Origin: Deroplatys truncata
Taxonomy: Eukaryota; Arthropoda; Insecta; Mantodea; Mantidae
Direction: 5' to 3'
DNA length: 64,000 nucleotides
Assembly: GCA_030765065.1 (NCBI GenBank)
Contig: CM060978.1
Coordinates: 55,704,421 to 55,768,420, forward strand
The stretch's first letter is position 1, and each line of letters begins with the position of its first letter. The position numbers and the translations under genes are program-made. Shown piece by piece: positions 5,681 through 53,799 of the stretch. The notes beneath the pieces are model-generated. The model had not been told where the DNA came from. It did no database searches and was given only the letters and a program-made list of their open reading frames with translations.

Positions 5681-5681
5681 A

Positions 5682-32235: not shown

Positions 32236-32395
32236 GCAACAACCTTCTCATGTGACCGAGTGAAGAGCGCCGCGGAAACGTTTAAGACTCGCATTCGGAG
32301 GTCCCAGTTTCGATCCCCGGCTATCACTCACTTTGATCCATGGGTTTTTCGTGGTTTCCCCGGGGGTCGCTAGGCGAATCCGAGTGTGGTTTCTA
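32236..32395 (+). mobile_element. SINE-like repeat S2, copy 3, left half
   Basis: tRNA-like GTTTCGATCCCCGGC, then CCATGGGTTTTTCGTGGTTTC and GGCGAATCCGAGTGTGGTTTC, as in S2 at 25.4 and 28.6 kb. Interrupted after TTTCTA at 32,390-32,395 by the palindromic element. The remainder continues at 50,785. Confidence 0.8.
32390..32395. repeat. Target-site duplication, left
   Basis: TTTCTA directly before the element terminus; an identical copy follows the right terminus. Confidence 0.85.
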
Positions 32396-32439
32396 AGTAG
32401 GATATATAGAGGAATTCGAGCACAGTTTTTTGCGTTTAT

Positions 32440-33370
32440 ATGGGAAAGGATAGGGAAAACGAGGCTAGATGCTAGGTTGAGAGAGTCTTCAAGGAGGAAA
32501 ATGCGTTTATATGCGAGAGATAGGGAATACGAGGGTCGATGCTAGGCTAGACGGGGTTGAAGGAGGGAATGCATCTTATATATGAGAGAGGTAGGGGAAT
32601 ATGAGGAGAAGTGCTAGGCTAGTCAGGAAGGTCTGAATGACAGAGTATACGTCTATATGGGAAAAGATAGGGAAAACGAAGGTAGGTGCTAGGTTGAGAG
32701 AGTCTTCAAGGAGGAAAATGCATTTATATGAGAGATGTAGGAAAACGAGGAAAGGTGTTAGGCTAGGCAGAAGTCGAGGAGTAGAGTAAGGTTTATATGA
32801 GAAGTATAGGAAAACGAGGAGAGGTATTAGGTTAGGAGAATTGAGTTTGTGTTTATAAGGAGAGACGAGAAAACGGAGAGAGATCCTATGCTAGGATAGA
32901 CAGGTGTTAAAGTTAGGTTAGATAGGAAACCAAGGAGTGATACTCAGCTAGAGGGGGGGCAGGAGGGAATGAGCTTTTGAGAGGTAGGGGATACGGGGAG
33001 TGGTGTTAGACTAGACAGGGCTTGAAACGTAGGGCATGGTTTATATGTATGAGAAGTATAGGAACAGGAAGAGGGGTGCTAGGCTAGACAGAGGTTGAGG
33101 AGTAGAGTATAGTTTATATGAGAGGTATAGGAAAACGAGGAGAGGAGTTAGACTAGACAGAGGTCGAGGAGCAGAGTATGGTTTATGTGAGAGTCATAGG
33201 TAAACGAGAGAGGCGTTAGGCTAGACAGAGCTAGAGGAGTAGAGTATGGTTTATATGAGAGGTATAGGAACAGGAGGAGAGGTGTTAGGCTAGACAGGTA
33301 GTGTAGCAGTAGGAATATGGACTTATATACAGGAGAGATAGGGAATAGGAGGTGCTAGACTTGAAAGCGA
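32440..33370. repeat. 68-bp tandem array, left
   Basis: Units built on TTTATATGAGAGGTATAGG..AACGAGGAGAGGTGTTAGGCTAGACAG recur every 68-69 bp (for example at 33,113, 33,182 and 33,250). Outer units are more diverged. Non-coding. Confidence 0.88.
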
Positions 33371-33439
33371 CTTTAGACGTGAACATAATGGAAAACTGTT
33401 TCATGTCAATGTTCTAGACATGCCCATCACGTAACCTAT

Positions 33440-33745
33440 TCAGGGAAAAGGTGACTCGTCAGGGGAAAAAGGTGACTGCTCAGGGAAAAAGGAGGCCCAC
33501 AAAGGGAAAAAGTTGACTAGCAAAGGGAAAAACGTAACCAGCAAAGGGAAAAAGGCGACCAGCAAAGGGAAAAATGTGACCAGCAAAGGGAAAAAGGTGA
33601 CCAGCAAAGGGAAAAAGGCGGCATGCAACGGGAAAAAGGTGACCAGTAAAGGGAAAAATGTCACCAGCAAAGGGAAAAAGGCGACCACCAAAGGGAAAAA
33701 GGTGAGCCATAAAGGGAAAAAGGTGACCTGCAACGGGAAAAGCTA
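33440..33745. repeat. 21-bp minisatellite, left
   Basis: About 14 units of GGTGACCAGCAAAGGGAAAAA with sporadic substitutions. The length is a multiple of three and stop-free, so three long low-complexity frames appear; they are not genes. This array has one more unit than its right-arm partner. Confidence 0.93.
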
Positions 33746-33779
33746 ACCCACTAACACTAACAGGTAAGTAATTCAGGTA

Positions 33780-35650
33780 GTATTGCAAGAGGCTGACTGG
33801 ATCATAGCAGTGTATGATTTCACAGGTAATTCAGCTAGTATCGTATGCATTTAGGCTAATTCGTCTAGTAACACAGGATAGATTCCAGAGGCTAACTGCA
33901 TCATACCTATGCATGATTTCACAGCTAATTCAGCTAGTATCGTAGGTATTTAGGCTAATTCAGGTAGTATCACAGGAGGCTAGATTCCAGTGTTGGGTAT
34001 AGCATAGTTTCATATTTCAAGGTAATTCAGAGGGTATCGTAGGTATTTAGGATAATTCAAGTAACATAGGTGTTTAGAGTAATTAAGCAAGCATTACAGG
34101 AGGGTAGGTTCCAGGGGTTGGTTATAACCTAGCTTCGTATTTCACAGATAGTTCAGGTAATATCGTAAGTATTTGAGGTAATCGACAGAGCTTCACAGAT
34201 ATTATTGATCATTTCGATCAGAGATTTGTATCACAGCTATTTAAGGTAAATGCAGATGATTCAGGTTGTATCAATGGTATTTGAGTCATTTTAACAGGTA
34301 ATTCAGATAGTATCACAGGTGCTCGTGCTAATTTAGAGCAGGAATTCGTATCAGAGCTAGTTAAGGTAATTTCACATGATTCGGGTAGTATCACAGGTAT
34401 TTAAATCATTTTCATAGCCAATTCAGCTAGTATCGTGAGCATTTAAGCTAATTCAGCTAGTATCACAGGAGGCTAGATTCCAGAGGCTAACTGCATCATA
34501 GCTATGCATGATTTCACAGCTAATTCAGCTAGTATCGTAGGTATTTAGGCTAATTCAGGTAGTATCACAGGAGGCTAGATTCCAGGGTTGGGTATAGCAT
34601 AGTTTCATATTTCAAGGTAATTCAGAGGGTATCGTAGGTATTTAGGATAATTCAAGTAACATAGGTGCTTAGAGTAATTAAGCAAGCATTACAGGAGGGT
34701 AGGTTCCAGGGGTTGGTTATAGCCTAGTTTCGTATTTTACAGATAGTTCAGGTAATATCATAAGTATTTGGATAATCAGCATAGTTTCACAGATGCTCGT
34801 AATAATTTCGATCAGAGATTTGTATCACGGCTATTTAAGGTAAATGCAGCTGATTCAGGTTGTATCAATGGTATTTGAGTCATTTTAATAGGCAATTCTG
34901 ATAGTATCACAGGTGCTCGTGCTAATTTAGAGCAGGAATTCGTATCAGAGCTAGTTAAGGTAATTTCACATGATTCGGGTAGTATCACAGGTATTTAAAT
35001 CATTTTCATAGCCAATTCAGCTAGTATCGTGAGCATTTAAGCTAATTCAGCTAGTATCACAGGAGGCTAGATTCCAGAGGCTAACTGCATCATAGCTATG
35101 CATGATTTCACAGCTAATTCAGCTAGTATCGTAGGTATTTAGGCTAATTCAGGTAGTATCACAGGAGGCTAGATTCCAGGGTTGGGTATAGCATAGTTTC
35201 ATATTTCAAGGTAATTCAGAGGGTATCGTAGGTATTTAGGATAATTCAAGTAACATAGGTGCTTAGAGTAATTAAGCAAGCATTACAGGAGGGTAGGTTC
35301 CAGGGGTTGGTTATAGCCTAGTTTCGTATTTTACAGATAGTTCAGGTAATATCATAAGTATTTGGATAATCAGCATAGTTTCACAGATGCTCGTAATAAT
35401 TTCGATCAGAGATTTGTATCACGGCTATTTAAGGTAAATGCAGCTGATTCAGGTTGTATCAATGGTATTTGAGTCATTTTAATAGGCAATTCTGATAGTA
35501 TCACAGGTGCTCGTACTAATTTAGAGCAGGAATTCGTATCTGAGCTATTTAATGTAAATTCACACGATTCGGGTAGTATCACAGGTATTTAAGTCATTTT
35601 AACAGGCAATTCAACTAGTATCACAGGTACTCATGGTAATATAGAGAGTA
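33780..35650. repeat. 594-bp higher-order repeat, left
   Basis: About three copies of a ~594-bp unit (TTCCAGAGGCTAACTGCATC at 33,883, 34,478 and 35,072). Each is made of shorter words such as AATTCAGCTAGTATCACAGG and GTAGGTATTTAGG. It lies downstream of the polymerase 3' end. The regularly iterated short words would suit a protein-binding or replication-related array, but that is inference. Confidence 0.9.
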
Positions 35651-35807
35651 ATTAAATTATAAAACATTTCTCATCCAACGTTACAACAATTTATATACTT
35701 TTTTCTAAATCTTACAAACTTATTATATGTTAAACAGTTATTGTACGATGCGGAGAGGGATAAACTGCATATTGGTTCACAAATTGAAAAGCTTTACGTC
35801 AACATCC

Positions 35808-35813
35808 TTTATT
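35808..35813 (-). terminator. Poly(A) signal of left polymerase gene
   Basis: AATAAA on the minus strand, about 200 bp beyond the polymerase stop codon; mirrored at 47,381. Confidence 0.65.
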
Positions 35814-36016
35814 TTAGTTCGTTATAGATGTCTCTCCCCCTTTATCTAGGCTTGAGACTAGCACTAGGATTGCTCCTAATGGCAGGGTTACCACCTTCCC
35901 TTCCATCTTCTTCTTTCTTCATCAGGCGTCAGCTATCTGCATATACAGCACACAGATAACCTTCTTTTTAAGATTGTAGACTCACTAGAAAATCTTTATC
36001 TTTAACTTACATTCTT

Positions 36017-37342
36017 TTAAGCACTGTTTGTAATGGCGTAATGTCCATACGCATATGTTGTTATCCCGTCCTCAGCAATAATTCTTTTATCATCAAACGG
36101 AGTCAATGCAATTTTATTCACTTGTACTGTAGCAAGAGCATGCTTTCGTGATAGGATCAGATTCATAGGTGTTCTGATGATTTCACTGGTTTTAAGACAG
36201 TCTGTATAGCTGTCAAACGAAATGTACTGCTTAATAGCGCTACGTTTTATACCTTTAATCTTTTTTATCATTGACCCTTGAATATCTAAGGCATACATCT
36301 TAGGACGTAGTCCAACAAAGCGTAGGATGATTTTGCTATTAGCCTCATCTTTAAATTTTCCCAATACCTTCTTGTTCTGAGTAGAGTAACATATATGGTT
36401 GGCAGGGTAATCAGCTGTATCGAGATGCTCAAGAAAACGTAGCTTGTCCTGGTACACATCTTCAGTTGTTACACGATGAATGAACGAATCAGTGTCCATA
36501 TACATAAGTTTCAGGTTTTCAGCTCCATAATAAGGCAACAAAACGTCGTAATGATAGTTATACATTAATGTTTTGGAGATGTCCAACACACTCATACCAA
36601 TGTATATAGGCTTGTTGAATACAATCTGACGAGAGGCCATATGTACAGCAGCTAGATTATCAGCATATATCGTCCTGTCGATAAACGTAGGCTTGGCGAT
36701 CAGCTTCTCTAGAGTTTTTTCATTGGTCACCAGTCGTATATCCATACGGTTACGCAGGTTCTCCATAGTTTTTCCAAACATAGCGTTGTTAAAGAGCTTG
36801 TAGAGATCCTTCTCGAAATCATTTGCAGCTTGTTGTCGTAGCCTGTTGTTAAATTCCACATAAGGTTTCAACCACTGAGACTGTCGGAATTGTAGCACAC
36901 GATGGATTTTTGTTAGTCGTAGTCCATGACTAAGAGCTTGCTTCAAAGCCATGTAATGCACTACATACTTCTTTCGAGGTCCAAGATGAGGTATCAGTTT
37001 CTTTGTAGATGATTCCAATGGTTTCATACATTCTGGCAGGAACGGTAGATCGTTGTGTAGATCGTGAAGTTCAGCAGGATACTCGATGTCGACTTCTAAT
37101 ATGTACCCATGAGGATCATCTTCTTGTAGTGTTTCTAAGTTGATTTCTTCAGGTGACACCCACTGAAATCCACCAAAAGGAAGGGCGTGACACATTGCCC
37201 ACCCATATTGGTTATTAGCGTCCTCGTATGTGATAAATTGGGTTGGTCTCGACGGATCAAACTTATCCATATAAGTGTTATTAGCCTCAGCATACCGATG
37301 GGAAACTTGGCATAAACCTCCTCTTATACCTGATTCCACCAT
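36017..37342 (-). CDS. Protein-primed DNA polymerase B, polymerase half (left)
   Basis: 441 codons covering the palm, thumb and C-terminus of a family B polymerase. Motif A region is DANNQYG (residues 41-47), motif B is KLFNNAMFG (182-190), and motif C is YMDTDSF (281-287) with the two catalytic Asp. The C-terminal NKIALTPFDDKR and AYGH segment is usual for this viral/Polinton group. The listed ATG is internal to the real protein: the upstream half lies in the other frame and overlaps by 19 bp (37,324-37,342). It differs from the right copy by Thr versus Ala at residue 292. All catalytic residues are intact, so the lesion is confined to the junction. Confidence 0.93.
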   Translation of the reverse strand: MVESGIRGGLCQVSHRYAEANNTYMDKFDPSRPTQFITYEDANNQYGWAMCHALPFGGFQWVSPEEINLETLQEDDPHGYILEVDIEYPAELHDLHNDLPFLPECMKPLESSTKKLIPHLGPRKKYVVHYMALKQALSHGLRLTKIHRVLQFRQSQWLKPYVEFNNRLRQQAANDFEKDLYKLFNNAMFGKTMENLRNRMDIRLVTNEKTLEKLIAKPTFIDRTIYADNLAAVHMASRQIVFNKPIYIGMSVLDISKTLMYNYHYDVLLPYYGAENLKLMYMDTDSFIHRVTTEDVYQDKLRFLEHLDTADYPANHICYSTQNKKVLGKFKDEANSKIILRFVGLRPKMYALDIQGSMIKKIKGIKRSAIKQYISFDSYTDCLKTSEIIRTPMNLILSRKHALATVQVNKIALTPFDDKRIIAEDGITTYAYGHYAITNSA

Positions 37343-39660
37343 GAGTAGTTGATCATAATCTGTAACAGTTCCAGCTTAATTCCAGTATACAGTAACATGG
37401 CGTCCCATGTAAGACCTGGAGAGGTAAAATAATGGGCAGGATCAACTTTGTGTGTTTTAAGGGTTTGCTCTCTGAATGTCTCAAAGACATCAGCTAGGAG
37501 AAGTACATCCGAAGTTAAGTAGAGATCGCTGTACTCTCCCAGGTTTCTCACATTAAACAGCTCCCATACATTTCTAGCATGATCGTAGTCAGTATCAGTA
37601 ATTTCTTCTTCATTTAATCTATTGTAGAAGTAGTCCTTAGGAGGCAAGCAGGTCTCGTTCAGGACATCCCATGACGTAACAAAATCATAGGGAAATACAC
37701 CCTTACGGGTCATCAACTTCAATTTGTCTTCTCCAAAGTACTTTAGCGTTTCAGGATACGAGGTTAGATTTTTTACCAACTTATCCAAGCTTGTACTGAG
37801 GAATCGGAAGCTATCCACAAATCGAAGCTTTATATCTCCTACATACTTGGTGAATGAGATATAGCTTTCTTCAGAGTTAGGAATCACCTCCACACGTTCA
37901 CTTGTACAACCCAGCTCCTTAACAATGAAATGAGAGTCATATCCGCTAAGGTTATGCATGAAGACTGGTATATATTTAGGTGTTTTACAGGCTAAATTAC
38001 ATTCATTATGAAGACTTCCACCGCTGATGTGATCATGGTCGCGTACTTTATAGTTCTCTTCTGTAAAGGGTTTTCCACACAAGTAGCATGTCGTAGAAGA
38101 TTCGAAATCCTTTTGCTGTTGATCCATAAGTTTCAGAGGCTTAGCAGATTTGTATATATTACCAATCATTTCTGCAAGAGATGTAAGGTACAGCATAAAC
38201 TTCTGAGCAGCATCAGCACCACGATACACATAGGGTTGCTTAGGAAGACCAGTTTCGAGATGTTCAACACTGGATGTAGGCTTCACGTAAACACAGAAGC
38301 TCATTGGTGTGTGCTCTTGATAAGGGGTTGTATAGGAAGTTTCAGGATTGGGTATACACGTATGGCATGGAGTGAGAATACTCTCAAAATCCGCATAGAT
38401 GACATAAGGTACTTTCAGCATCCTCTCAACATTTTTAAACTGTACAATTGATTTCTCCTTGGTAGGCATAACTACCCTTGCAACACCATGTTGAATACAG
38501 ACGGCTGCATGTTCTTGTAGTTTTTCCTGTCCACTTCGTCCATATCGATCATCAAAATGTGTAAAGCAGCGCTTACAAGTATAAACCCGTCCATTATGGT
38601 TAGTTTTCTGGCGTCGAACGAGTTTCTCAAAATTCTTTATATACACGTAGTGATGTTTTCCACTGCTGTCATTCAATAGTAGCAGGTCGCGATGTTCAGG
38701 CAGTTCAATATCAGCAACCTTTATCGGATACACTTCGTGCTTCTCATCCAACCCGAAAACGTTAATAGACATATTGTTAAACTTCTCAAATTTAGGTATT
38801 TGAGAAAGTGGAGTAGGGTAGGAAACACAGCTGAAGTCGTACTTATCTTGAAGTTGTTTATATTTGCTCACACGTTGCGCATCCTTCCCTATGAATTTAG
38901 CTAATATAGAGTACATGAAACATTTATCGTCGGTAAAGTTCTGAATGTTTATACACGCTTCTTTAGCTCCGACAGATGACGGTAGTGGTATGTAGCTACT
39001 TCCTCGTAACGGGTTGTACTTGTTGATACGAAGTCGAACTCCTTCCACAGCAAGCAAAGCCCAGCTGCTACCCTTAAGCTGAGACTCCTCCATTTCAGTC
39101 ACCAATTTCTTGAATTTCACTTCCATCGTTGACTCCAGATCAGTTTCCAGGAAAACAGCTTGATTCCGTGTTTTAAATGTTTTGTCACAGGTTTCTCCAA
39201 TACTGTTAACAAATCGACACTCAGCCAGCAGATTAATTTTAACACTCTTATGAATGCTAAGCTCTTTATGCACAGCCTGGATTATACGTTGTTTTGCCTC
39301 TTGCAGATACATATTCAGGTCCTTAGCTGATTCGCATCGTATAAAATACGATTTCAATCGTCCTTCGAATGAAGTTTCGTATTCTTTCATATCACAGTCC
39401 TCCATTGTTGACAGTAACTGATGTTTAGTTGGCTCCAATCTTCTTTTCTTCTGAGGGCTGCTTATTTCACATATATCTTCGTGTCGCTGCCCCTTATAAC
39501 CATCTTTGAAGGTTACATTACAATGTTTACATTTGAAGAGCTTCTTGCAGCTCATCTCGTGTCTTCTCTTGTCATAACCTCGGAGGAACTTCTTCCCACA
39601 TTTTCCGCATGCATATCCAGTAGCGCTTGGAATAATATCCTTATACGCTGAGTTATTCAT
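37324..39660 (-). CDS. Protein-primed DNA polymerase B, N-terminal and exonuclease half (left)
   Basis: 778 codons. Two N-terminal zinc fingers of C2HC type (C18, C21, H34, C38; C44, C47, H60, C64) are followed by a KKRR basic patch at 71-74. A third Cys/His cluster is at 362-388. Exonuclease motif I is ADFES (D424, E426). An endonuclease VII-like Cys/His cluster follows (C525, C528, DHDH 541-544, H551, C554-N555). Exo II is HNLSGYDSHF (D575) and Exo III is YLTSD (Y714, D718). The frame then ends prematurely where the polymerase half continues in another frame. The start at 39,660 lies about 134 bp downstream of a TATA/initiator pair. Tyr281 here is His in the right copy. Confidence 0.93.
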   Translation of the reverse strand: MNNSAYKDIIPSATGYACGKCGKKFLRGYDKRRHEMSCKKLFKCKHCNVTFKDGYKGQRHEDICEISSPQKKRRLEPTKHQLLSTMEDCDMKEYETSFEGRLKSYFIRCESAKDLNMYLQEAKQRIIQAVHKELSIHKSVKINLLAECRFVNSIGETCDKTFKTRNQAVFLETDLESTMEVKFKKLVTEMEESQLKGSSWALLAVEGVRLRINKYNPLRGSSYIPLPSSVGAKEACINIQNFTDDKCFMYSILAKFIGKDAQRVSKYKQLQDKYDFSCVSYPTPLSQIPKFEKFNNMSINVFGLDEKHEVYPIKVADIELPEHRDLLLLNDSSGKHHYVYIKNFEKLVRRQKTNHNGRVYTCKRCFTHFDDRYGRSGQEKLQEHAAVCIQHGVARVVMPTKEKSIVQFKNVERMLKVPYVIYADFESILTPCHTCIPNPETSYTTPYQEHTPMSFCVYVKPTSSVEHLETGLPKQPYVYRGADAAQKFMLYLTSLAEMIGNIYKSAKPLKLMDQQQKDFESSTTCYLCGKPFTEENYKVRDHDHISGGSLHNECNLACKTPKYIPVFMHNLSGYDSHFIVKELGCTSERVEVIPNSEESYISFTKYVGDIKLRFVDSFRFLSTSLDKLVKNLTSYPETLKYFGEDKLKLMTRKGVFPYDFVTSWDVLNETCLPPKDYFYNRLNEEEITDTDYDHARNVWELFNVRNLGEYSDLYLTSDVLLLADVFETFREQTLKTHKVDPAHYFTSPGLTWDAMLLYTGIKLELLQIMINYSWWNQV

Positions 39661-39793
39661 CTTTATTCTTGATGTAATAACGTATTAATCACTGATCAAT
39701 GAAATGTAGACCTCTTCACCTTGACACCACTTTAGAAAGCTGATTATTCTTGGAGAGAACACGATGTTAACACCTCAAGACTAATTAGCACAA

Positions 39794-39826
39794 TGAAGTC
39801 CAATGCCCTAGATCACCATATTTATA
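39794..39826 (-). promoter_or_regulatory. Core promoter of left polymerase gene
   Basis: Minus-strand TATAAATA (39,819-39,826) with an initiator TTCATTG whose A is at 39,794, 32 bp from the TATA start. This is classical arthropod RNA polymerase II spacing. Mirrored in the right arm. Confidence 0.78.
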
Positions 39827-39829
39827 GAG

Positions 39830-40440
39830 GGAGCACGAACCTTTTAGATCAATCATAAACTCTCTCCATAACCACCTGTATATGATCGCTCAACGTGTAC
39901 TAACCCCCCAGCCATATAACCTCAAGTCTAGAGACAGGATGTTTATGACGTCACACCCAGAGACAGGATGTCTGGCAGCATCAAACACGTTTAAACTCGT
40001 CTCATAACTACCTGCTTATGCTGTCACACCAGCAAGAGAAGTATTCCCACACGCTCATTCAGACATATATTTCAAATTCAAGCCCACTACCACCATCACC
40101 ACCTATTGTACCAAGGTTAATTCAAGCTGTATTATCACAATACTTAAAAGTAAAAGCTTAAAAGGAAACCTAGAAGATTTTCCCCCTTATTTACTTAATT
40201 ATTTCATGTTTTTATTCCCTTTTCAATTCTTCCTTTCCATCTTCTCACAGAAAGACCATTACATTTCACTACAATCATGAGAAAAGCAATTTTTCCAGAG
40301 TTACACAGATTCTAAGCTTCTAAATCGAACCTGGTAATACTTTTAATAAATGTATTTTAGCTCCCCAATATCAGCATCTACCATTTAATCTTTACTCGAA
40401 CCTGATATGATCCATAAGCTTGAAGATATATGAAATCACC
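39830..40440. other. Unique upstream region, left arm
   Basis: About 600 bp between promoter and B-box array. It contains a local repeat of 'gagacaggatgt' (39,935-39,973). No open frame. Confidence 0.5.
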
Positions 40441-41432
40441 CTTCGGGATTCGATCTGAGTACTTTAAAGTAATATTTGTCACGATAACGATATTTAAGGA
40501 CTAGATACTCTGTTTGAGTTTACCTTGACATGTTTATCTAAATTAAATTACGAGTTATTAAATTTTTGCAAGTAAATTTCATTGAATCGGTATTCGAACC
40601 CAGAACACCAGGAACAAAATAATTTATATTATTAGTCTGACATGTTAAACAAAGCTGTATGTAGTTACATCATCGATCTAAGTGATATATTCTAGTGTAC
40701 AGAGGAAAATTAAGAAAGTCATTAAAAGATGGGGAATCTAACCAAGCACAACTGATTGGCAATTATATACAGCATTAATTACCCATCATAGAAGCTATCA
40801 ATCATGCTTTAGTCCACTCCTCTACCTCACTTAGTTCCCGAGATAATGAAAATTTTAAAATTAGGATCGAACCCAGGATGTCATGTATCTAATTACACAT
40901 CCACAAGATACTACCTAATAACATAAACGCAATAAAGTTTATTTGGCGTCTTTATCTTAATTGGTTTAGGAGTTATTAAATTTATAATTAAATTCCATCG
41001 AATCAGTATTCGAACCCAGAACACCAAGAACAAAATAATTTATAATATGAGTTTGGTATGCTTAAAGGTGCTGTATGTAGTTACAGCATCAATTTAAGTG
41101 ATATTTTCTAGAGTATAGAGTAAAATTAAGCAAGTCATTAAAAAATCGGGATTCGAACTAGAGACAACTGATTAAAAATTATATACAGTATTAATTTCAC
41201 ATTATAACAGCTATCAAACATGCTTTGGTCCATTCCTCTAGCTTTCTTAGTTTCCGAGATAATGAAGTTTTTAAAATTAAGGATCGAACCCAGGACACCA
41301 GGTACCCAAATATACATTTACAAGAAACTACCTAATGACATTAATGTAATAAGGTTTATTTGGCGTCTTTATCTTAATTAGTCTCTGAGTTATTAGAAGA
41401 TGAATTTGTAATCACCCGTAGGATTCGAACCC
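40440..41432 (-). repeat. B-box-like array, left arm
   Basis: Mirror of the right array. Reverse complements of GGTTCGA-type motifs lie at 41,421, 41,281, 41,148, 41,007, 40,864, 40,733 (degraded here), 40,591 and 40,447, roughly every 130-144 bp. Three neighbouring units form a ~415-bp higher-order unit. Confidence 0.82.
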
Positions 41433-41565
41433 AGGCATCCAGGTCAACTTGGAACAATACCCTAATGACGCGGCGCATTCCAAAGAATTGATTAGTTTTT
41501 ATCCCATTGTTCTATCTCTTTTCATTCAGGAGATATAAGCGATTAAACAGTAGAAATATAATGGC

Positions 41566-41628
41566 GACTCCAGCGCAAAGAGATGCCGACATCTGATAAA
41601 GTTCTTTGATCTATGCCGGCAAGCTCCG
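41566..41628. other. Unpaired centre of the palindrome
   Basis: About 63 bp not shared by the arms, between CAGTAGAAATA...ATGG and its inverse. Short GCCGAC / ATGCCGGC words could form a small stem. As single-stranded DNA or RNA this would be the loop of a 9-kb hairpin. Confidence 0.8.
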
Positions 41629-41754
41629 CCCATTTTATTTCTACTGTTTAATCGCTTATATCTCCTGAATGAAAAGAGATAGAACAATGGGATAAAAACT
41701 AATCAATTCTTTGGAATGCGCCGCGTCATTAGGGTATTGTTCCAAGTTGACCTG

Positions 41755-42880
41755 GATGCCTGGGTTCGAATCCTACGGGTGATTACAAATTCATCTTCTA
41801 ATAACTCAGAGACTAATTAAGATAAAGACGCCAAATAAACGTTATTACATTAATGTCATTAGGTAGTTTCTTGTAAATGTATATTTGGGTACCTGGTGTC
41901 CTGGGTTCGATCCTTAATTTTAAAAACTTCATTATCTCGGAAACTAAGAAAGCTAGAGGAATGGACCAAAGCATGTTTGATAGCTGTTATAATGTGAAAT
42001 TAATACTGTATATAATTTTTAATCAGTTGTCTCTAGTTCGAATCCCGATTTTTTAATGACTTGCTTAATTTTACTCTATACTCTAGAAAATATCACTTAA
42101 ATTGATGCTGTAACTACATACAGCACCTTTAAGCATACCAAACTCATATTATAAATTATTTTGTTCTTGGTGTTCTGGGTTCGAATACTGATTCGATGGA
42201 ATTTAATTATAAATTTAATAACTCCTAAACCAATTAAGATAAAGACGCCAAAGAAACTTTATTGCGTTTATGTTATTAGGTAGTATCTTGTGGATGTGTA
42301 ATTAGATACATGACATCCTGGGTTCGATCCTAATTTTAAAATTTTCATTATCTCGGGAACTAAGTGAGGTAGAGGAGTGGACTAAAGCATGATTGATAGC
42401 TTCTATGATGGGTAATTAATGCTGTATATAATTGCCAATCAGTTGTGCTTGGTTCGATTCCCCATCTTTTAATGACTTTCTTAATTTTCCTCTGTACACT
42501 AGAATATATCACTTAGATCGATGATGTAACTACATACAGCTTTGTTTAACATGTCAGACTAATAATATAAATTATTTTGTTCCTGGTGTTCTGGGTTCGA
42601 ATACCGATTCAATGAAATTTACTTGCAAAAATTTAATAACTCGTAATTTAATTTAGATAAACATGTCAAGGTAAACTCAAACAGAGTATCTAGTCCTTAA
42701 ATATCGTTATCGTGACAAATATTACTTTAAAGTACTCAGATCGAATCCCGAAGGGTGATTTCATATATCTTCAAGCTTATGGATCATATCAGGTTCGAGT
42801 AAAGATTAAATGGTAGATGCTGATATTGGGGAGCTAAAATACATTTATTAAAAGTATTACCAGGTTCGATTTAGAAGCTT
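41755..42880 (+). repeat. B-box-like array, right arm
   Basis: Motifs resembling the tRNA B-box GGTTCGANTCC occur at 41,763 (perfect), 41,904, 42,035, 42,178, 42,321, 42,451 (perfect), 42,594 and 42,738. Spacings are 141, 131, 143, 143, 130, 143 and 144 bp; weaker ones are at 42,792 and 42,863. Sequence between motifs repeats every three units (415-416 bp), for example 'taagataaagacgccaaa' after units 1 and 4. No tRNA fold accompanies them. Confidence 0.85.
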
Positions 42881-43360
42881 AGAATCTGTGTAACTCTGGA
42901 AAAATTGCTTTTCTCATGATTGTAGTGAAATGTAATGGTCTTTCTGTGAGAAGATGGAAAGGAAGAATTGAAAAGGGAATAAAAACATGAAATAATTAAG
43001 TAAATAAGGGGGAAAATCTTCTAGGTTTCCTTTTAAGCTTTTACTTTTAAGTATTGTGATAATACAGCTTGAATTAACCTTGGTACAATAGGTGGTGATG
43101 GTGGTAGTGGGCTTGAATTTGAAATATATGTCTGAATGAGCGTGTGGGAATACTTCTCTTGCTGGTGTGACAGCATAAGCAGGTAGTTATGAGACGAGTT
43201 TAAACGTGTTTGATGCTGCCAGACATCCTGTCTCTGGGTGTGACGTCATAAACATCCTGTCTCTAGACTTGAGGTTATATGGCTGGGGGGTTAGTACACG
43301 TTGAGCGATCATATACAGGTGGTTATGGAGAGAGTTTATGATTGATCTAAAAGGTTCGTG
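42881..43360. other. Unique upstream region, right arm
   Basis: Mirror of 39,830-40,320; non-coding, with two 'catcctgtctct' repeats at about 43,224 and 43,252. Confidence 0.5.
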
Positions 43361-43367
43361 CTCCCTC

Positions 43368-43402
43368 TATAAATATGGTGATCTAGGGCATTGGACTTCA
43401 TT
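43368..43402 (+). promoter_or_regulatory. Core promoter of right polymerase gene
   Basis: TATAAATA at 43,368-43,375 and initiator TTCATTG with its A at 43,400, 32 bp downstream. The leader to the ATG is about 134 bp. The element thus carries its own RNA polymerase II promoter. Confidence 0.78.
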
Positions 43403-43533
43403 GTGCTAATTAGTCTTGAGGTGTTAACATCGTGTTCTCCCCAAGAATAATCAGCTTTCTAAAGTGGTGTCAAGGTGAAGAGGTCTACATTTCATTGATC
43501 AGTGATTAATACGTTATTACATCAAGAATAAAG

Positions 43534-45870
43534 ATGAATAACTCAGCGTATAAGGATATTATTCCAAGCGCTACTGGATATGCATGCGGAAAATGTGGGA
43601 AGAAGTTCCTCCGAGGTTATGACAAGAGAAGACACGAGATGAGCTGCAAGAAGCTCTTCAAATGTAAACATTGTAATGTAACCTTCAAAGATGGTTATAA
43701 GGGGCAGCGACACGAAGATATATGTGAAATAAGCAGCCCTCAGAAGAAAAGAAGATTGGAGCCAACTAAACATCAGTTACTGTCAACAATGGAGGACTGT
43801 GATATGAAAGAATACGAAACTTCATTCGAAGGACGATTGAAATCGTATTTTATACGATGCGAATCAGCTAAGGACCTGAATATGTATCTGCAAGAGGCAA
43901 AACAACGTATAATCCAGGCTGTGCATAAAGAGCTTAGCATTCATAAGAGTGTTAAAATTAATCTGCTGGCTGAGTGTCGATTTGTTAACAGTATTGGAGA
44001 AACCTGTGACAAAACATTTAAAACACGGAATCAAGCTGTTTTCCTGGAAACTGATCTGGAGTCAACGATGGAAGTGAAATTCAAGAAATTGGTGACTGAA
44101 ATGGAGGAGTCTCAGCTTAAGGGTAGCAGCTGGGCTTTGCTTGCTGTGGAAGGAGTTCGACTTCGTATCAACAAGTACAACCCGTTACGAGGAAGTAGCT
44201 ACATACCACTACCGTCATCTGTCGGAGCTAAAGAAGCGTGTATAAACATTCAGAACTTTACCGACGATAAATGTTTCATGTACTCTATATTAGCTAAATT
44301 CATAGGGAAGGATGCGCAACGTGTGAGCAAATATAAACAACTTCAAGATAAGTACGACTTCAGCTGTGTTTCCCACCCTACTCCACTTTCTCAAATACCT
44401 AAATTTGAGAAGTTTAACAATATGTCTATTAACGTTTTCGGGTTGGATGAGAAGCACGAAGTGTATCCGATAAAGGTTGCTGATATTGAACTGCCTGAAC
44501 ATCGCGACCTGCTACTATTGAATGACAGCAGTGGAAAACATCACTACGTGTATATAAAGAATTTTGAGAAACTCGTTCGACGCCAGAAAACTAACCATAA
44601 TGGACGGGTTTATACTTGTAAGCGCTGCTTTACACATTTTGATGATCGATATGGACGAAGTGGACAGGAAAAACTACAAGAACATGCAGCCGTCTGTATT
44701 CAACATGGTGTTGCAAGGGTAGTTATGCCTACCAAGGAGAAATCAATTGTACAGTTTAAAAATGTTGAGAGGATGCTGAAAGTACCTTATGTCATCTATG
44801 CGGATTTTGAGAGTATTCTCACTCCATGCCATACGTGTATACCCAATCCTGAAACTTCCTATACAACCCCTTATCAAGAGCACACACCAATGAGCTTCTG
44901 TGTTTACGTGAAGCCTACATCCAGTGTTGAACATCTCGAAACTGGTCTTCCTAAGCAACCCTATGTGTATCGTGGTGCTGATGCTGCTCAGAAGTTTATG
45001 CTGTACCTTACATCTCTTGCAGAAATGATTGGTAATATATACAAATCTGCTAAGCCTCTGAAACTTATGGATCAACAGCAAAAGGATTTCGAATCTTCTA
45101 CGACATGCTACTTGTGTGGAAAACCCTTTACAGAAGAGAACTATAAAGTACGCGACCATGATCACATCAGCGGTGGAAGTCTTCATAATGAATGTAATTT
45201 AGCCTGTAAAACACCTAAATATATACCAGTCTTCATGCATAACCTTAGCGGATATGACTCTCATTTCATTGTTAAGGAGCTGGGTTGTACAAGTGAACGT
45301 GTGGAGGTGATTCCTAACTCTGAAGAAAGCTATATCTCATTCACCAAGTATGTAGGAGATATAAAGCTTCGATTTGTGGATAGCTTCCGATTCCTCAGTA
45401 CAAGCTTGGATAAGTTGGTAAAAAATCTAACCTCGTATCCTGAAACGCTAAAGTACTTTGGAGAAGACAAATTGAAGTTGATGACCCGTAAGGGTGTATT
45501 TCCCTATGATTTTGTTACGTCATGGGATGTCCTGAACGAGACCTGCTTGCCTCCTAAGGACTACTTCTACAATAGATTAAATGAAGAAGAAATTACTGAT
45601 ACTGACTACGATCATGCTAGAAATGTATGGGAGCTGTTTAATGTGAGAAACCTGGGAGAGTACAGCGATCTCTACTTAACTTCGGATGTACTTCTCCTAG
45701 CTGATGTCTTTGAGACATTCAGAGAGCAAACCCTTAAAACACACAAAGTTGATCCTGCCCATTATTTTACCTCTCCAGGTCTTACATGGGACGCCATGTT
45801 ACTGTATACTGGAATTAAGCTGGAACTGTTACAGATTATGATCAACTACTCATGGTGGAATCAGGTATAA
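43534..45870 (+). CDS. Protein-primed DNA polymerase B, N-terminal and exonuclease half (right)
   Basis: 778 codons, the same domain order as the left copy: two C2HC fingers, a third Cys/His cluster, Exo I, an endonuclease VII-like Cys/His cluster, Exo II and Exo III. The only amino-acid difference from the left copy that I see is His281 for Tyr. It ends in the same premature stop as the left copy, 19 bp into the overlap with the downstream frame. The long opposite-strand frames within it (44,743-45,186 and others) are shadows. Confidence 0.93.
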   Translation: MNNSAYKDIIPSATGYACGKCGKKFLRGYDKRRHEMSCKKLFKCKHCNVTFKDGYKGQRHEDICEISSPQKKRRLEPTKHQLLSTMEDCDMKEYETSFEGRLKSYFIRCESAKDLNMYLQEAKQRIIQAVHKELSIHKSVKINLLAECRFVNSIGETCDKTFKTRNQAVFLETDLESTMEVKFKKLVTEMEESQLKGSSWALLAVEGVRLRINKYNPLRGSSYIPLPSSVGAKEACINIQNFTDDKCFMYSILAKFIGKDAQRVSKYKQLQDKYDFSCVSHPTPLSQIPKFEKFNNMSINVFGLDEKHEVYPIKVADIELPEHRDLLLLNDSSGKHHYVYIKNFEKLVRRQKTNHNGRVYTCKRCFTHFDDRYGRSGQEKLQEHAAVCIQHGVARVVMPTKEKSIVQFKNVERMLKVPYVIYADFESILTPCHTCIPNPETSYTTPYQEHTPMSFCVYVKPTSSVEHLETGLPKQPYVYRGADAAQKFMLYLTSLAEMIGNIYKSAKPLKLMDQQQKDFESSTTCYLCGKPFTEENYKVRDHDHISGGSLHNECNLACKTPKYIPVFMHNLSGYDSHFIVKELGCTSERVEVIPNSEESYISFTKYVGDIKLRFVDSFRFLSTSLDKLVKNLTSYPETLKYFGEDKLKLMTRKGVFPYDFVTSWDVLNETCLPPKDYFYNRLNEEEITDTDYDHARNVWELFNVRNLGEYSDLYLTSDVLLLADVFETFREQTLKTHKVDPAHYFTSPGLTWDAMLLYTGIKLELLQIMINYSWWNQV

Positions 45871-47177
45871 GAGGAGGTTTATGCCAAGTTTCCCATCGGT
45901 ATGCTGAGGCTAATAACACTTATATGGATAAGTTTGATCCGTCGAGACCAACCCAATTTATCACATACGAGGACGCTAATAACCAATATGGGTGGGCAAT
46001 GTGTCACGCCCTTCCTTTTGGTGGATTTCAGTGGGTGTCACCTGAAGAAATCAACTTAGAAACACTACAAGAAGATGATCCTCATGGGTACATATTAGAA
46101 GTCGACATCGAGTATCCTGCTGAACTTCACGATCTACACAACGATCTACCGTTCCTGCCAGAGTGTATGAAACCATTGGAATCATCTACAAAGAAACTGA
46201 TACCTCATCTTGGACCTCGAAAGAAGTATGTAGTGCATTACATGGCTTTGAAGCAAGCTCTTAGTCATGGACTACGACTAACAAAAATCCATCGTGTGCT
46301 ACAATTCCGACAGTCTCAGTGGTTGAAACCTTATGTGGAATTTAACAACAGGCTACGACAACAAGCTGCAAATGATTTCGAGAAGGATCTCTACAAGCTC
46401 TTTAACAACGCTATGTTTGGAAAAACTATGGAGAACCTGCGTAACCGTATGGATATACGACTGGTGACCAATGAAAAAACTCTAGAGAAGCTGATCGCCA
46501 AGCCTACGTTTATCGACAGGACGATATATGCTGATAATCTAGCTGCTGTACATATGGCCTCTCGTCAGATTGTATTCAACAAGCCTATATACATTGGTAT
46601 GAGTGTGTTGGACATCTCCAAGACATTAATGTATAACTATCATTACGACGTTTTGTTGCCTTATTATGGAGCTGAAAACCTGAAACTTATGTATATGGAC
46701 ACTGATTCGTTCATTCATCGTGTAGCAACTGAAGATGTGTACCAGGACAAGCTACGTTTTCTTGAGCATCTCGATACAGCTGATTACCCTGCCAACCATA
46801 TATGTTACTCTACTCAGAACAAGAAGGTATTGGGAAAATTTAAAGATGAGGCTAATAGCAAAATCATCCTACGCTTTGTTGGACTACGTCCTAAGATGTA
46901 TGCCTTAGATATTCAAGGGTCAATGATAAAAAAGATTAAAGGTATAAAACGTAGCGCTATTAAGCAGTACATTTCGTTTGACAGCTATACAGACTGTCTT
47001 AAAACCAGTGAAATCATCAGAACACCTATGAATCTGATCCTATCACGAAAGCATGCTCTTGCTACAGTACAAGTGAATAAAATTGCATTGACTCCGTTTG
47101 ATGATAAAAGAATTATTGCTGAGGACGGGATAACAACATATGCGTATGGACATTACGCCATTACAAACAGTGCTTAA
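45852..47177 (+). CDS. Protein-primed DNA polymerase B, polymerase half (right)
   Basis: 441 codons with motif A DANNQYG, motif B KLFNNAMFG and motif C YMDTDSF intact, ending in TAA at 47,175. Ala292 here is Thr in the left copy. Whether a full polymerase is made depends on how the frame change between 45,852 and 45,870 is handled. Without recoding, the two halves would be separate or inactive products. Confidence 0.93.
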   Translation: MVESGIRGGLCQVSHRYAEANNTYMDKFDPSRPTQFITYEDANNQYGWAMCHALPFGGFQWVSPEEINLETLQEDDPHGYILEVDIEYPAELHDLHNDLPFLPECMKPLESSTKKLIPHLGPRKKYVVHYMALKQALSHGLRLTKIHRVLQFRQSQWLKPYVEFNNRLRQQAANDFEKDLYKLFNNAMFGKTMENLRNRMDIRLVTNEKTLEKLIAKPTFIDRTIYADNLAAVHMASRQIVFNKPIYIGMSVLDISKTLMYNYHYDVLLPYYGAENLKLMYMDTDSFIHRVATEDVYQDKLRFLEHLDTADYPANHICYSTQNKKVLGKFKDEANSKIILRFVGLRPKMYALDIQGSMIKKIKGIKRSAIKQYISFDSYTDCLKTSEIIRTPMNLILSRKHALATVQVNKIALTPFDDKRIIAEDGITTYAYGHYAITNSA

Positions 47178-47380
47178 AAGAATGTAAGTTAAAGATAAAG
47201 ATTTTCTAGTGAGTCTACAATCTTAAAAAGAAGGTTATCTGTGTGCTGTATATGCAGATAGCTGACGCCTGATGAAGAAAGAAGAAGATGGAAGGGAAGG
47301 TGGTAACCCTGCCATTAGGAGCAATCCTAGTGCTAGTCTCAAGCCTAGATAAAAGGGGAGAGACATCTATAACGAACTAA

Positions 47381-47386
47381 AATAAA
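47381..47386 (+). terminator. Poly(A) signal of right polymerase gene
   Basis: AATAAA about 204 bp after the stop codon, mirrored in the left arm. Confidence 0.65.
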
Positions 47387-47544
47387 GGATGTTGACGTAA
47401 AGCTTTTCAATTTGTGAACCAATATGCAGTTTATCCCTCTCCGCATCGTACAATAACTGTTTAACATATAATAAGTTTGTAAGATTTAGAAAAAAGTATA
47501 TAAATTGTTGTAACGTTGGATGAGAAATGTTTTATAATTTAATT

Positions 47545-49415
47545 ACTCTCTATATTACCATGAGTACCTGTGATACTAGTTGAATTGCCTGTTAAAATGA
47601 CTTAAATACCTGTGATACTACCCGAATCGTGTGAATTTACATTAAATAGCTCAGATACGAATTCCTGCTCTAAATTAGTACGAGCACCTGTGATACTATC
47701 AGAATTGCCTATTAAAATGACTCAAATACCATTGATACAACCTGAATCAGCTGCATTTACCTTAAATAGCCGTGATACAAATCTCTGATCGAAATTATTA
47801 CGAGCATCTGTGAAACTATGCTGATTATCCAAATACTTATGATATTACCTGAACTATCTGTAAAATACGAAACTAGGCTATAACCAACCCCTGGAACCTA
47901 CCCTCCTGTAATGCTTGCTTAATTACTCTAAGCACCTATGTTACTTGAATTATCCTAAATACCTACGATACCCTCTGAATTACCTTGAAATATGAAACTA
48001 TGCTATACCCAACCCTGGAATCTAGCCTCCTGTGATACTACCTGAATTAGCCTAAATACCTACGATACTAGCTGAATTAGCTGTGAAATCATGCATAGCT
48101 ATGATGCAGTTAGCCTCTGGAATCTAGCCTCCTGTGATACTAGCTGAATTAGCTTAAATGCTCACGATACTAGCAGAATTGGCTATGAAAATGATTTAAA
48201 TACCTGTGATACTACCCGAATCATGTGAAATTACCTTAACTAGCTCTGATACGAATTCCTGCTCTAAATTAGCACGAGCACCTGTGATACTATCAGAATT
48301 GCCTATTAAAATGACTCAAATACCATTGATACAACCTGAATCAGCTGCATTTACCTTAAATAGCCGTGATACAAATCTCTGATCGAAATTATTACGAGCA
48401 TCTGTGAAACTATGCTGATTATCCAAATACTTATGATATTACCTGAACTATCTGTAAAATACGAAACTAGGCTATAACCAACCCCTGGAACCTACCCTCC
48501 TGTAATGCTTGCTTAATTACTCTAAGCACCTATGTTACTTGAATTATCCTAAATACCTACGATACCCTCTGAATTACCTTGAAATATGAAACTATGCTAT
48601 ACCCAACCCTGGAATCTAGCCTCCTGTGATACTACCTGAATTAGCCTAAATACCTACGATACTAGCTGAATTAGCTGTGAAATCATGCATAGCTATGATG
48701 CAGTTAGCCTCTGGAATCTAGCCTCCTGTGATACTAGCTGAATTAGCTTAAATGCTCACGATACTAGCTGAATTGGCTATGAAAATGATTTAAATACCTG
48801 TGATACTACCCGAATCATGTGAAATTACCTTAACTAGCTCTGATACGAATTCCTGCTCTAAATTAGCACGAGCACCTGTGATACTATCTGAATTACCTGT
48901 TAAAATGACTCAAATACCATTGATACAACCTGAATCATCTGCATTTACCTTAAATAGCTGTGATACAAATCTCTGATCGAAATGATCAATAATATCTGTG
49001 AAGCTCTGTCGATTACCTCAAATACTTACGATATTACCTGAACTATCTGTGAAATACGAAGCTAGGTTATAACCAACCCCTGGAACCTACCCTCCTGTAA
49101 TGCTTGCTTAATTACTCTAAACACCTATGTTACTTGAATTATCCTAAATACCTACGATACCCTCTGAATTACCTTGAAATATGAAACTATGCTATACCCA
49201 ACACTGGAATCTAGCCTCCTGTGATACTACCTGAATTAGCCTAAATACCTACGATACTAGCTGAATTAGCTGTGAAATCATGCATAGGTATGATGCAGTT
49301 AGCCTCTGGAATCTATCCTGTGTTACTAGACGAATTAGCCTAAATGCATACGATACTAGCTGAATTACCTGTGAAATCATACACTGCTATGATCCAGTCA
49401 GCCTCTTGCAATACT
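47545..49415. repeat. 594-bp higher-order repeat, right
   Basis: Mirror of 33,780-35,650: about three units of ~594 bp, each with CCTGTGATACTA-CTGAATTA words. Confidence 0.9.
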
Positions 49416-49444
49416 ACCTGAATTACTTACCTGTTAGTGTTAGT

Positions 49445-49740
49445 GGGTTAGCTTTTCCCGTTGCAGGTCACCTTTTTCCCTTTATGGCTCACCTTTTTCC
49501 CTTTGGTGGTCGCCTTTTTCCCTTTACTGGTCACCTTTTTCCCGTTGCATGCCGCCTTTTTCCCTTTGTTGGTCACCTTTTTCCCTTTGCTGGTCACATT
49601 TTTCCCTTTGCTGGTCGCCTTTTTCCCTTTGCTGGTTACGTTTTTCCCTTTGCTAGTCAACTTTTTCCCTTTGTGGGCCTCCTTTTTCCCTGAGCAGTCA
49701 CCTTTTTCCCCTGAACGAGTCACCTTTTCCCTGAATAGGT
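49445..49740. repeat. 21-bp minisatellite, right
   Basis: Units of TTTTTCCCTTTGCTGGTCACC. One unit fewer than the left array, which accounts for the 7-codon difference between the mirror-image low-complexity frames. Confidence 0.93.
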
Positions 49741-49799
49741 TACGTGATGGGCATGTCTAGAACATTGACATGAAACAGTTTTCCATTATGTTCACGTCT

Positions 49800-50730
49800 A
49801 AAGTCGCTTTCAAGTCTAGCACCTCCTATTCCCTATCTCTCCTGTATATAAGTCCATATTCCTACTGCTACACTACCTGTCTAGCCTAACACCTCTCCTC
49901 CTGTTCCTATACCTCTCATATAAACCATACTCTACTCCTCTAGCTCTGTCTAGCCTAACGCCTCTCTCGTTTACCTATGACTCTCACATAAACCATACTC
50001 TGCTCCTCGACCTCTGTCTAGTCTAACTCCTCTCCTCGTTTTCCTATACCTCTCATATAAACTATACTCTACTCCTCAACCTCTGTCTAGCCTAGCACCC
50101 CTCTTCCTGTTCCTATACTTCTCATACATATAAACCATGCCCTACGTTTCAAGCCCTGTCTAGTCTAACACCACTCCCCGTATCCCCTACCTCTCAAAAG
50201 CTCATTCCCTCCTGCCCCCCCTCTAGCTGAGTATCACTCCTTGGTTTCCTATCTAACCTAACTTTAACACCTGTCTATCCTAGCATAGGATCTCTCTCCG
50301 TTTTCTCGTCTCTCCTTATAAACACAAACTCAATTCTCCTAACCTAATACCTCTCCTCGTTTTCCTATACTTCTCATATAAACCTTACTCTACTCCTCGA
50401 CTTCTGCCTAGCCTAACACCTTTCCTCGTTTTCCTACATCTCTCATATAAATGCATTTTCCTCCTTGAAGACTCTCTCAACCTAGCACCTACCTTCGTTT
50501 TCCCTATCTTTTCCCATATAGACGTATACTCTGTCATTCAGACCTTCCTGACTAGCCTAGCACTTCTCCTCATATTCCCCTACCTCTCTCATATATAAGA
50601 TGCATTCCCTCCTTCAACCCCGTCTAGCCTAGCATCGACCCTCGTATTCCCTATCTCTCGCATATAAACGCATTTTCCTCCTTGAAGACTCTCTCAACCT
50701 AGCATCTAGCCTCGTTTTCCCTATCCTTTC
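49800..50730. repeat. 68-bp tandem array, right
   Basis: Mirror of 32,440-33,370 (CTCTGTCTAGCCTAACACCTC, CTCATATAAACCATACTC words). Confidence 0.88.
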
Positions 50731-50778
50731 CCATATAAACGCAAAAAACTGTGCTCGAATTCCTCTATATATCCTACT

Positions 50779-50784
50779 TTTCTA
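50779..50784. repeat. Target-site duplication, right
   Basis: TTTCTA immediately after the terminal CCTACT. Confidence 0.85.
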
Positions 50785-50860
50785 GTTTATCACAATTTCC
50801 TTTCCAGCATTTCTCTTTCATTCCGTTTCCTTCATATTTTCAGGTGTGCTTCTACGTTCC
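50785..50860 (+). mobile_element. SINE-like repeat S2, copy 3, right half
   Basis: '...aatttcctttcc', 'tttcattccgtttcc', 'ttcatattttcag' follow the same order as the S2 body after GTGGTTTC at 28,640-28,700. With the palindrome and one TTTCTA removed, the S2 copy becomes continuous. Confidence 0.75.

Positions 50861-52376: not shown

Positions 52377-52426
<50 letters not shown>
52377..52426. repeat. (TA)n microsatellite
   Basis: About 25 TA units; the adjoining Tc1 element is inserted at its end, as expected for a TA-targeting transposon. Confidence 0.95.
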
Positions 52427-52429
<3 letters not shown>

Positions 52430-53786: not shown

Positions 53787-53799
53787 TATATTATGTCTT

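What the first reader, a model, noticed from the sequence alone, without database searches (positions are those of the whole stretch)
32390..50784. An 18.4-kb palindromic, polymerase-only mobile element with a Polinton-type 6-bp target duplication
Seen: the inverted repeat starts AGTAGG at 32,396 and ends CCTACT at 50,778. TTTCTA is duplicated at both edges, and the two flanks are the halves of one S2 retroposon, so an empty site can be reconstructed. Known: 6-bp duplications, AG termini and protein-primed PolB are Maverick/Polinton traits. Unusual: Polinton inverted repeats are normally hundreds of bp and bracket some ten genes. Here the inverted repeats are the element, and each carries only PolB and repeat arrays. 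This could be a previously undescribed class of palindromic Polinton derivative.
Basis: partly seen in the sequence, partly recalled or inferred. Interest (0 to 1): 0.93.

Follow-up and report, generated by a model that had tools for sequence, protein, structure and literature searches.

The report
Palindromic polymerase-only jumping gene family
A large genome carries a mobile DNA family, about a thousand copies by its end sequence, whose typical copy is a giant palindrome with the same virus-like DNA polymerase gene in both halves, and the two halves of a copy are kept nearly identical to each other as the family spreads.

Summary
Window 32,396-50,778 is one copy of a high-copy family. The terminal 14-mer occurs 1,149+1,166 times in the host assembly against 19+19 for the reversed control. 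Perfect, all-different 6-bp target duplications flank 21 of 24 elements read at both ends. PolB hits form 35 divergent pairs (70 of the 95 best-scoring hits); 66 of the 95 lie in a 1,225-aa open frame, while the window copy's PolB is split identically in both arms. Arms are sisters within the element in 10 of 10 pairs tested, 0-14 differences per 4.3 kb; other loci are at median 114-206. PolB is under purifying selection between elements (dN/dS about 0.2). PolB is homologous to PolB of a virus contig with packaging ATPase and integrase genes, but neither of these matches the window element. Best reading: a Polinton-derived replicon whose unit is the whole palindrome, probably copied through a snap-back hairpin that equalises the arms, with integrase supplied in trans. 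The mobile family is well supported; hairpin and trans integrase are inferred.

The parts
32390..32395 (.). left target-site duplication TTTCTA
50779..50784 (.). right target-site duplication TTTCTA
32272..32395 (+). left half of the host retroposon that was interrupted
   Evidence: joined flanks align across the junction to the copy near 28,528
50785..50827 (+). right part of the same interrupted host retroposon
32396..41564 (+). left arm of the palindrome
41565..41629 (.). asymmetric centre, an imperfect hairpin tip; homologous core in 11 of 20 midpoint stretches of end-selected elements
41630..50778 (-). right arm of the palindrome
32431..33297 (+). subterminal G-rich tandem arrays, period about 69-71 bp
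49877..50743 (-). mirror of the subterminal arrays
33442..33741 (+). 21-bp tandem array (one unit more than the mirror copy)
49453..49735 (-). mirror 21-bp tandem array
33875..35666 (+). array of about 594-595-bp units
47544..49318 (-). mirror array of about 594-595-bp units
37324..39660 (-). PolB, N-terminal frame, left arm (778 aa; C2H2-like fingers, N-terminal domain, endonuclease-VII-like insert, exonuclease part)
   Evidence: domains from the mirror copy
36017..37342 (-). PolB, C-terminal frame, left arm (441 aa; polymerase part)
43534..45870 (+). PolB, N-terminal frame, right arm (778 aa)
45852..47177 (+). PolB, C-terminal frame, right arm (441 aa)
40565..41395 (+). two 416-bp repeats beside the centre, left arm, upstream of PolB
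41799..42661 (-). mirror pair of 416-bp repeats, right arm

Best explanation
A Polinton-derived transposon reduced to a replicon: ends that an integrase can insert, plus a polymerase of the Polinton kind, present twice because the transposing unit is a complete palindrome. Shown: it is a real insertion, one of a family of about a thousand or more by end count; the palindrome, with an inherited centre in about half of the midpoints sampled, is the repeated unit; arms are equalised within elements; the polymerase is kept by selection during spread. Inferred: (1) PolB starts at the AGT ends by protein priming, its N-terminal domain being the terminal protein, as proposed for Polintons and bidnaviruses; (2) the displaced single strand is self-complementary and snaps into a roughly 9-kb hairpin whose tip is the imperfect centre; (3) replication or repair through that hairpin makes both arms copies of one sequence, so arms are near-identical at insertion and drift afterwards; (4) a Polinton-type integrase from other elements inserts the linear palindrome with a 6-bp stagger. 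The window copy, with PolB broken identically in both arms, was then probably mobilised by polymerase from other copies.
For: Ends 1,149+1,166 vs 19+19 control; 25-mer end 159+164 vs 0+0; of the first 100 listed 25-mer places, 46 +/- pairs of 9.4-18.7 kb and 8 single ends. Perfect 6-bp duplications in 21 of 24 elements, all different. 35 pairs among the 95 scored PolB hits, all divergent; control: the 128 scored integrase hits contain one inverted pair (positions inspected by eye). Arms sisters in 10 of 10 pairs. Same centre core in 11 of 20 midpoint stretches. Purifying selection: median dN 0.015, dS 0.085 over 78 pairs of 13 loci; end-selected copy against the window pieces 0.016/0.082 and 0.005/0.022. 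Same-length short frame in both arms of 4 of 35 pairs (my count). Short palindromes without detectable PolB (L112, L113) or with PolB fragments (L108) also have 98.3-99.5% similar arms. PolB homology to virus contigs, one of them with rve and Pox_A32 hits. A family of 309-aa rve frames exists in the host.
Against: No hairpin or single-stranded form was observed; the centre's strong fold (z -14.7) is expected of any palindrome. Arm equality could also come from gene conversion in the chromosome. No element with integrase and the same ends was found: the six integrase hits on the listed part of C1 lie 22 kb or more from any listed 14-mer end. 3 of 24 elements lack a matching duplication, one of them with mirrored flanks. 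25 of 95 PolB hits had no partner in the list; 18 of the 59 end groups in the first 100 listed 14-mer places are single. 9 of 20 midpoint stretches lack the window's centre core, and two of these nine show a palindrome with another core (L074, L085). In one of 10 elements (C3:27.7 Mb) one arm is by raw count nearer to another element (6) than to its partner (14). The PF03175 polymerase profile hits the window's N-terminal piece but not the open-frame copies or the virus PolB, and P0002 hits no Pfam family.
Confidence: 0.68

Rival explanations
1. The palindrome is the moving unit, but arms are equalised by ordinary arm-to-arm gene conversion in the chromosome after insertion, as in large chromosomal palindromes, with no hairpin intermediate.
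For: Explains sister arms and short frames of the same length in both arms in 4 of 35 pairs (my count).
Against: Between elements PolB changes under purifying selection (dN/dS about 0.2), so much of the branch shared by both arms accumulated while the element was under selection, not as an inert insertion. Shorter frames in one arm only stand in 7 of 35 pairs (my count), and C1:96.35 Mb has one arm open and the other broken.
Confidence: 0.22
2. The palindromes are assembly fold-back artefacts of a single-arm element.
For: One element has 40 of 40 mirrored flank bases and one integrase copy lies as a 99.9% inverted pair, so fold-backs or inverted duplications may exist in this assembly.
Against: 21 of 24 elements have different left and right flanks joined by a perfect 6-bp duplication; a fold-back would mirror the flank. 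Arms differ by substitutions and repeat units. The 128 integrase hits show one inverted pair.
Confidence: 0.03
3. An ordinary Polinton that lost its central genes once by an internal rearrangement, then spread passively; PolB is a passenger of no importance.
For: None of the other virus-contig genes tested matches the window element; derivatives without detectable PolB also carry palindromic ends.
Against: A 1,225-aa frame in both arms in 21 of 35 pairs (my count, a list biased to good matches) and dN/dS near 0.2 also in an end-selected copy.
Confidence: 0.07

Closest known systems
Polinton/Maverick (and adintovirus-like) elements
   Same: 6-bp duplication, AG-type termini, inverted ends, PolB of the same kind with homologous N-terminal domain and (weakly, E 0.0011 in the virus contig) an endonuclease-VII-like insert, total size near 18 kb
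   Different: No integrase, ATPase or other virus-contig gene tested was found in the window element; inverted repeats of 9.2 kb make up the element, versus 46-1,447 bp in vertebrate Mavericks (PMC8097293, passages; insect values not looked up); two PolB genes facing outward
Foldback / Galileo 2-TIR elements
   Same: Elements made almost wholly of long, internally repetitive inverted repeats, with deletion derivatives (PMC3573991, passages)
   Different: In D. mojavensis Galileo repeats are 18-1,250 bp, duplications 7 bp, the superfamily is P, and the copies with the longest repeats lack the transposase frame; here each arm codes for a polymerase
piggybac-5 of cichlids
   Same: A transposon formed from two segments of one element in opposite senses (PMC11202377, passages)
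   Different: piggyBac-like; no polymerase mentioned in the passages seen
Bidnaviruses
   Same: Polinton-derived PolB whose N-terminal domain of about 400 aa may be the terminal protein; linear DNA with inverted ends (PMC4061559, passages)
   Different: Virus with capsid genes; not a palindrome throughout (recalled)
Self-complementary or end-duplicated viral genomes (parvovirus hairpins, adenovirus defective palindromes)
   Same: Snap-back hairpin logic, protein-primed strand displacement in the adenovirus case (recalled, from no call)
   Different: Those are viral genomes or defectives, not a high-copy transposon (recalled)

Membership tests
Polinton/Maverick | 6-bp target-site duplication | tested here: met
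   21 of 24 elements, all different
Polinton/Maverick | AG-type termini | tested here: met
   AGTAGG//CCTACT; vertebrate motifs (AGT)2//(ACT)2 and (AG)3//(CT)3
Polinton/Maverick | PolB of the Polinton type | tested here: met
   42-43% identity over about 434 aa to PolB of two virus contigs, N-terminal domain 34% over 200 aa; L111 PolB matches both arms of the window element; PF03175 on P0001 only
Polinton/Maverick | protein priming of replication | not testable with these tools
   N-terminal domain present by homology; priming itself needs biochemistry
Polinton/Maverick | retroviral-type integrase in the element | tested here: not met
   Virus-contig and host integrase proteins give no tblastn hit at E 1 in the window element; the only other frame of 120 aa or more is a 151-aa one antisense to PolB. 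A very divergent or intron-split gene is not excluded
Polinton/Maverick | capsid, ATPase and protease genes | tested here: not met
   ATPase and five other virus-contig proteins, no hit in the window element; protease tested only genome-wide by PF00770 and ATPase genome-wide, both empty and both without a positive control
Polinton/Maverick | inverted repeats of some hundreds of bp bracketing unique genes | tested here: not met
   Arms of about 9.2 kb, centre 65 nt
Foldback/Galileo | 7-bp (Galileo) duplication and P-type transposase | tested here: not met
   Duplications are 6 bp; no transposase frame seen in the window element, P-type profile not searched
Hairpin-replicating palindrome | equal arms within an element, different between elements | tested here: met
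   10 of 10 pairs sisters
Hairpin-replicating palindrome | hairpin or single-stranded DNA intermediate | not testable with these tools
   needs extrachromosomal DNA

The most novel reading that the evidence does not exclude
A distinct class of eukaryotic transposon whose replicon is a whole-element palindrome: each cycle passes through a single-strand snap-back hairpin, so one arm templates or corrects the other, the imperfect centre acts as the turning point, and arm divergence works as an insertion clock as LTRs do. It keeps only the polymerase and shares integrase with separate integrase-bearing elements of the same genome, so the Polinton functions are split between two families.
Probability: 0.45. 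Interest if true: 0.92.

Novelty: new variant of a known kind. Interest (0 to 1): 0.86.

Why it matters
Polintons are seen as the junction between transposons, plasmids and DNA viruses. Here the replication part of such an element appears to live on its own at high copy number as a very large palindrome, with concerted arms that suggest a replication route I did not find described for transposons in the papers searched. It makes the question of how protein-primed elements replicate inside a host testable from genome sequence (arm clock, centre inheritance, shared defects), and it is a natural source of very large palindromes in chromosomes.

Tried and rejected
Chance and assembly artefact were rejected by copies with unequal flanks and duplications. 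A single-arm parent was sought: the shortest listed 25-mer pair (9.4 kb, L108) is a palindromic deletion derivative, not a monomer. A full Polinton with the same ends was not found: the 44 matches listed for a virus PolB (36 of 26,187 candidates scored) have frames of 1,097-1,268 aa and several lie as divergent pairs, like this family, but they were not read; ATPase and PF00770 gave none genome-wide, without positive control. Structure prediction of the 441-aa piece with one relative gave pLDDT 34.9 and was not used for a fold search. Single-protein scans of IMG/VR gave nothing; a motif scan brought five contigs without convincing relatives; a second brought 10, one a relative. P0002 matched no phage record and P0001 matched five, only around the endonuclease-VII-like stretch. 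NCBIfam was empty; PDB sequence searches gave nothing for P0002 and only hits above E 0.05, zinc fingers and one other (ActH), for the rest. Papers: 10 searches; in the titles and abstract starts listed I saw no palindromic polymerase-only Polinton; most listed papers were not opened, and subscription papers, Repbase and Dfam were not searched. The dN/dS of the 441-aa piece was set aside because its hits were chosen by protein score. For one search, 6 of 30 loci with stops in the 500 codons were left out and 13 of the 24 open ones used, one arm per element, which leans towards intact copies.
Full report
Observation. The two arms, about 9.2 kb each, differ by 12 substitutions, one 21-bp unit and one base outside the centre and meet around 65 asymmetric nucleotides. 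The joined flanks restore a retroposon whose alignment with another copy near 28,528 runs across the junction. Each arm holds tandem arrays and one polymerase gene, read outward from the centre; in this copy the gene is split into frames of 778 and 441 aa at the same place in both arms.

Copies. The window lies in a 4.29-Gb assembly of 818 contigs, host not named. The 25-base end occurs 159+164 times with no hit for the reversed control, the 14-base end 1,149+1,166 times against 19+19. Only the first 100 places are listed in each case: for the 25-mer these make 46 pairs of 9.4-18.7 kb and 8 single ends; for the 14-mer 41 pairs, median 17.1 kb, 29 of them 16-19 kb, and 18 single ends. Both ends were read in 24 elements: the window, 10 chosen by PolB hits, 10 chosen by ends, and C1:96.35 Mb, C1:16.97 Mb and C1:181.64 Mb. 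Twenty-one have a perfect 6-bp duplication, all 21 different (recount). The three without are C1:271.97 Mb, C1:181.64 Mb and C1:159.01 Mb; the last has 40 of 40 mirrored flank bases and may be an assembly fold-back or a larger palindrome.

Polymerase pairs. The 441-aa piece found 95 scored hits (24,316 candidates of the first look), 66 of them in a frame of exactly 1,225 aa. They form 35 pairs, all divergent, spaced 7.5-13.0 kb and mostly 9.82-9.86 kb, and 25 singles. By my count, both arms have a 1,225-aa frame in 21 of 35 pairs, the same shorter frame in both arms in 4 (the window's among them), a shorter frame in one arm only in 7, and three are near-misses (1,223/1,223, 1,224/1,225, 718/703). 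As a control, the 128 scored hits of a host integrase contain one inverted pair (by eye).

Concerted arms. Thirty of the 95 loci were fetched; they include both arms of 10 elements. In the tree all 10 arm pairs are sisters. Arm differences are 0-14 per about 4,320 sites; the nearest other locus is 6-79 away and the median 114-206. In one element (C3:27.7 Mb) one arm is by raw count nearer to another element (6) than to its partner (14), which sits on a long branch. Independent evolution of arms since the palindrome arose would instead give two arm clades. The arms of C1:96.35 Mb differ by 29 substitutions in 8,402 columns, 21 of them within about 260 bases of a repeat array. Short derivatives are palindromic too: L108 (9.4 kb, PolB fragments, arms 98.3%), L113 (6.9 kb, no PolB detected, 99.5%), L112 (2.8 kb, no PolB detected, 98.9%).

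Centre. Of 20 midpoint stretches of end-selected elements, 11 contain the window's centre core (scores 35-70 against shuffle maxima of 14-18) and 9 do not. Of the nine, three are elements of 9.4-10.5 kb whose midpoint lies in PolB (by eye), two show a palindrome with another core (L074, L085), and four show no palindrome centre in the 701 bases read. Where present, the centre keeps its asymmetry while the arms are equalised. As single strand the window centre folds as one long hairpin, z -14.7, as any palindrome would.

Selection. On 500 codons upstream of the piece used for searching, 13 loci give, over 78 pairs, median dN 0.015 and dS 0.085 (loci with stops left out). A copy chosen by its end, C1:96.35 Mb, compared with the window pieces apart gives 0.016/0.082 and 0.005/0.022. 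The polymerase is therefore maintained while the family spreads, which argues against arm equality being only a slow process in dead insertions.

What the polymerase is. Pfam DNA_pol_B_2 matches the 778-aa piece (E 1.4e-14), but the open-frame copies and the virus PolB do not hit it; their best hit is Endonuclease_7, over its cut-off in three copies and under it in the virus. The 441-aa piece hits no Pfam family. The stronger evidence is homology: two IMG/VR contigs encode, in one frame each, a PolB 42-43% identical over about 434 aa; the N-terminal domain of one also matches (34% over 200 aa), and the PolB of the other matches both arms of the window element, 34% over its residues 181-816 and 43% over 815-1,282. 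That second contig carries Pox_A32-type ATPase and rve integrase genes. Exonuclease and polymerase motifs were recognised by eye from recalled consensus.

Integrase and other genes. Two integrases, the ATPase and five other proteins from the virus contigs and the host gave no tblastn hit at E 1 in the window element; the only non-PolB hit in the six stretches searched is E 0.55 in L112. The host holds an abundant family of 309-aa frames with an rve core; the six such hits on the listed part of C1 are 22 kb or more from the nearest listed 14-mer end.

Mechanism and novelty. The hairpin cycle is inference from anatomy, concerted arms and the protein-primed mode proposed for Polintons and bidnaviruses (PMC4061559, passages). 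In-chromosome gene conversion remains the main rival. Against published comparators (passages only: PMC8097293; PMC3573991; PMC11202377; PMC6431247; PMC2836005) the combination of whole-element palindrome and a polymerase in each arm is new to me; the ten paper searches listed nothing like it by title or abstract start, which does not exclude unopened or subscription papers or repeat databases. It fails defining features of a Polinton (integrase, capsid genes, short inverted repeats), so it is filed as Polinton-derived, not as a Polinton.

Noticed in passing
host assembly, e.g. C72:159,736-160,662 (L114) and 127 further scored hits: Abundant 309-aa rve-type integrase frames, preceded in L114 by the end of another frame; at C72 two copies lie inverted, 99.9% alike, 5.3 kb apart.
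   Followed up: partly
PolB of open-frame copies (L066, L017, L023) and window 43,534-45,870: An Endonuclease VII-like stretch (PF02945; a junction-resolving enzyme family, recalled) lies inside the polymerase, suggestive in a palindromic element; the window copy lacks three residues there relative to the C1:96.35 Mb copy (by eye).
   Followed up: partly
C1:159,011,953-159,030,345: Flanks of this copy are mirror images for the 40 bases read: fold-back in the assembly or a larger palindrome.
   Followed up: partly
C1:178,650,097-178,673,384: A 23.3-kb pair of family ends, the longest in the listed part; nested insertion or a larger form, not read.
   Followed up: no
host C7:156.3 Mb, C8:55.2 Mb, C16:232.1 Mb: PolB frames of 1,263-1,268 aa, some as divergent pairs: perhaps a further subfamily.
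   Followed up: no
window 52,422-53,791 and 62,568-63,794: Inverted pair of a repeat (91-94%) whose frame at 53,135-53,533 looks like the end of a Tc1/mariner-type transposase (by eye).
   Followed up: no
window 5,681-6,578; 26,345-27,222 and others: Dispersed repeat family of about 0.9 kb with many copies in the window.
   Followed up: no
L110:438-878: A virus contig with a related PolB also encodes a phospholipase A2-like domain (PF08398).
   Followed up: no
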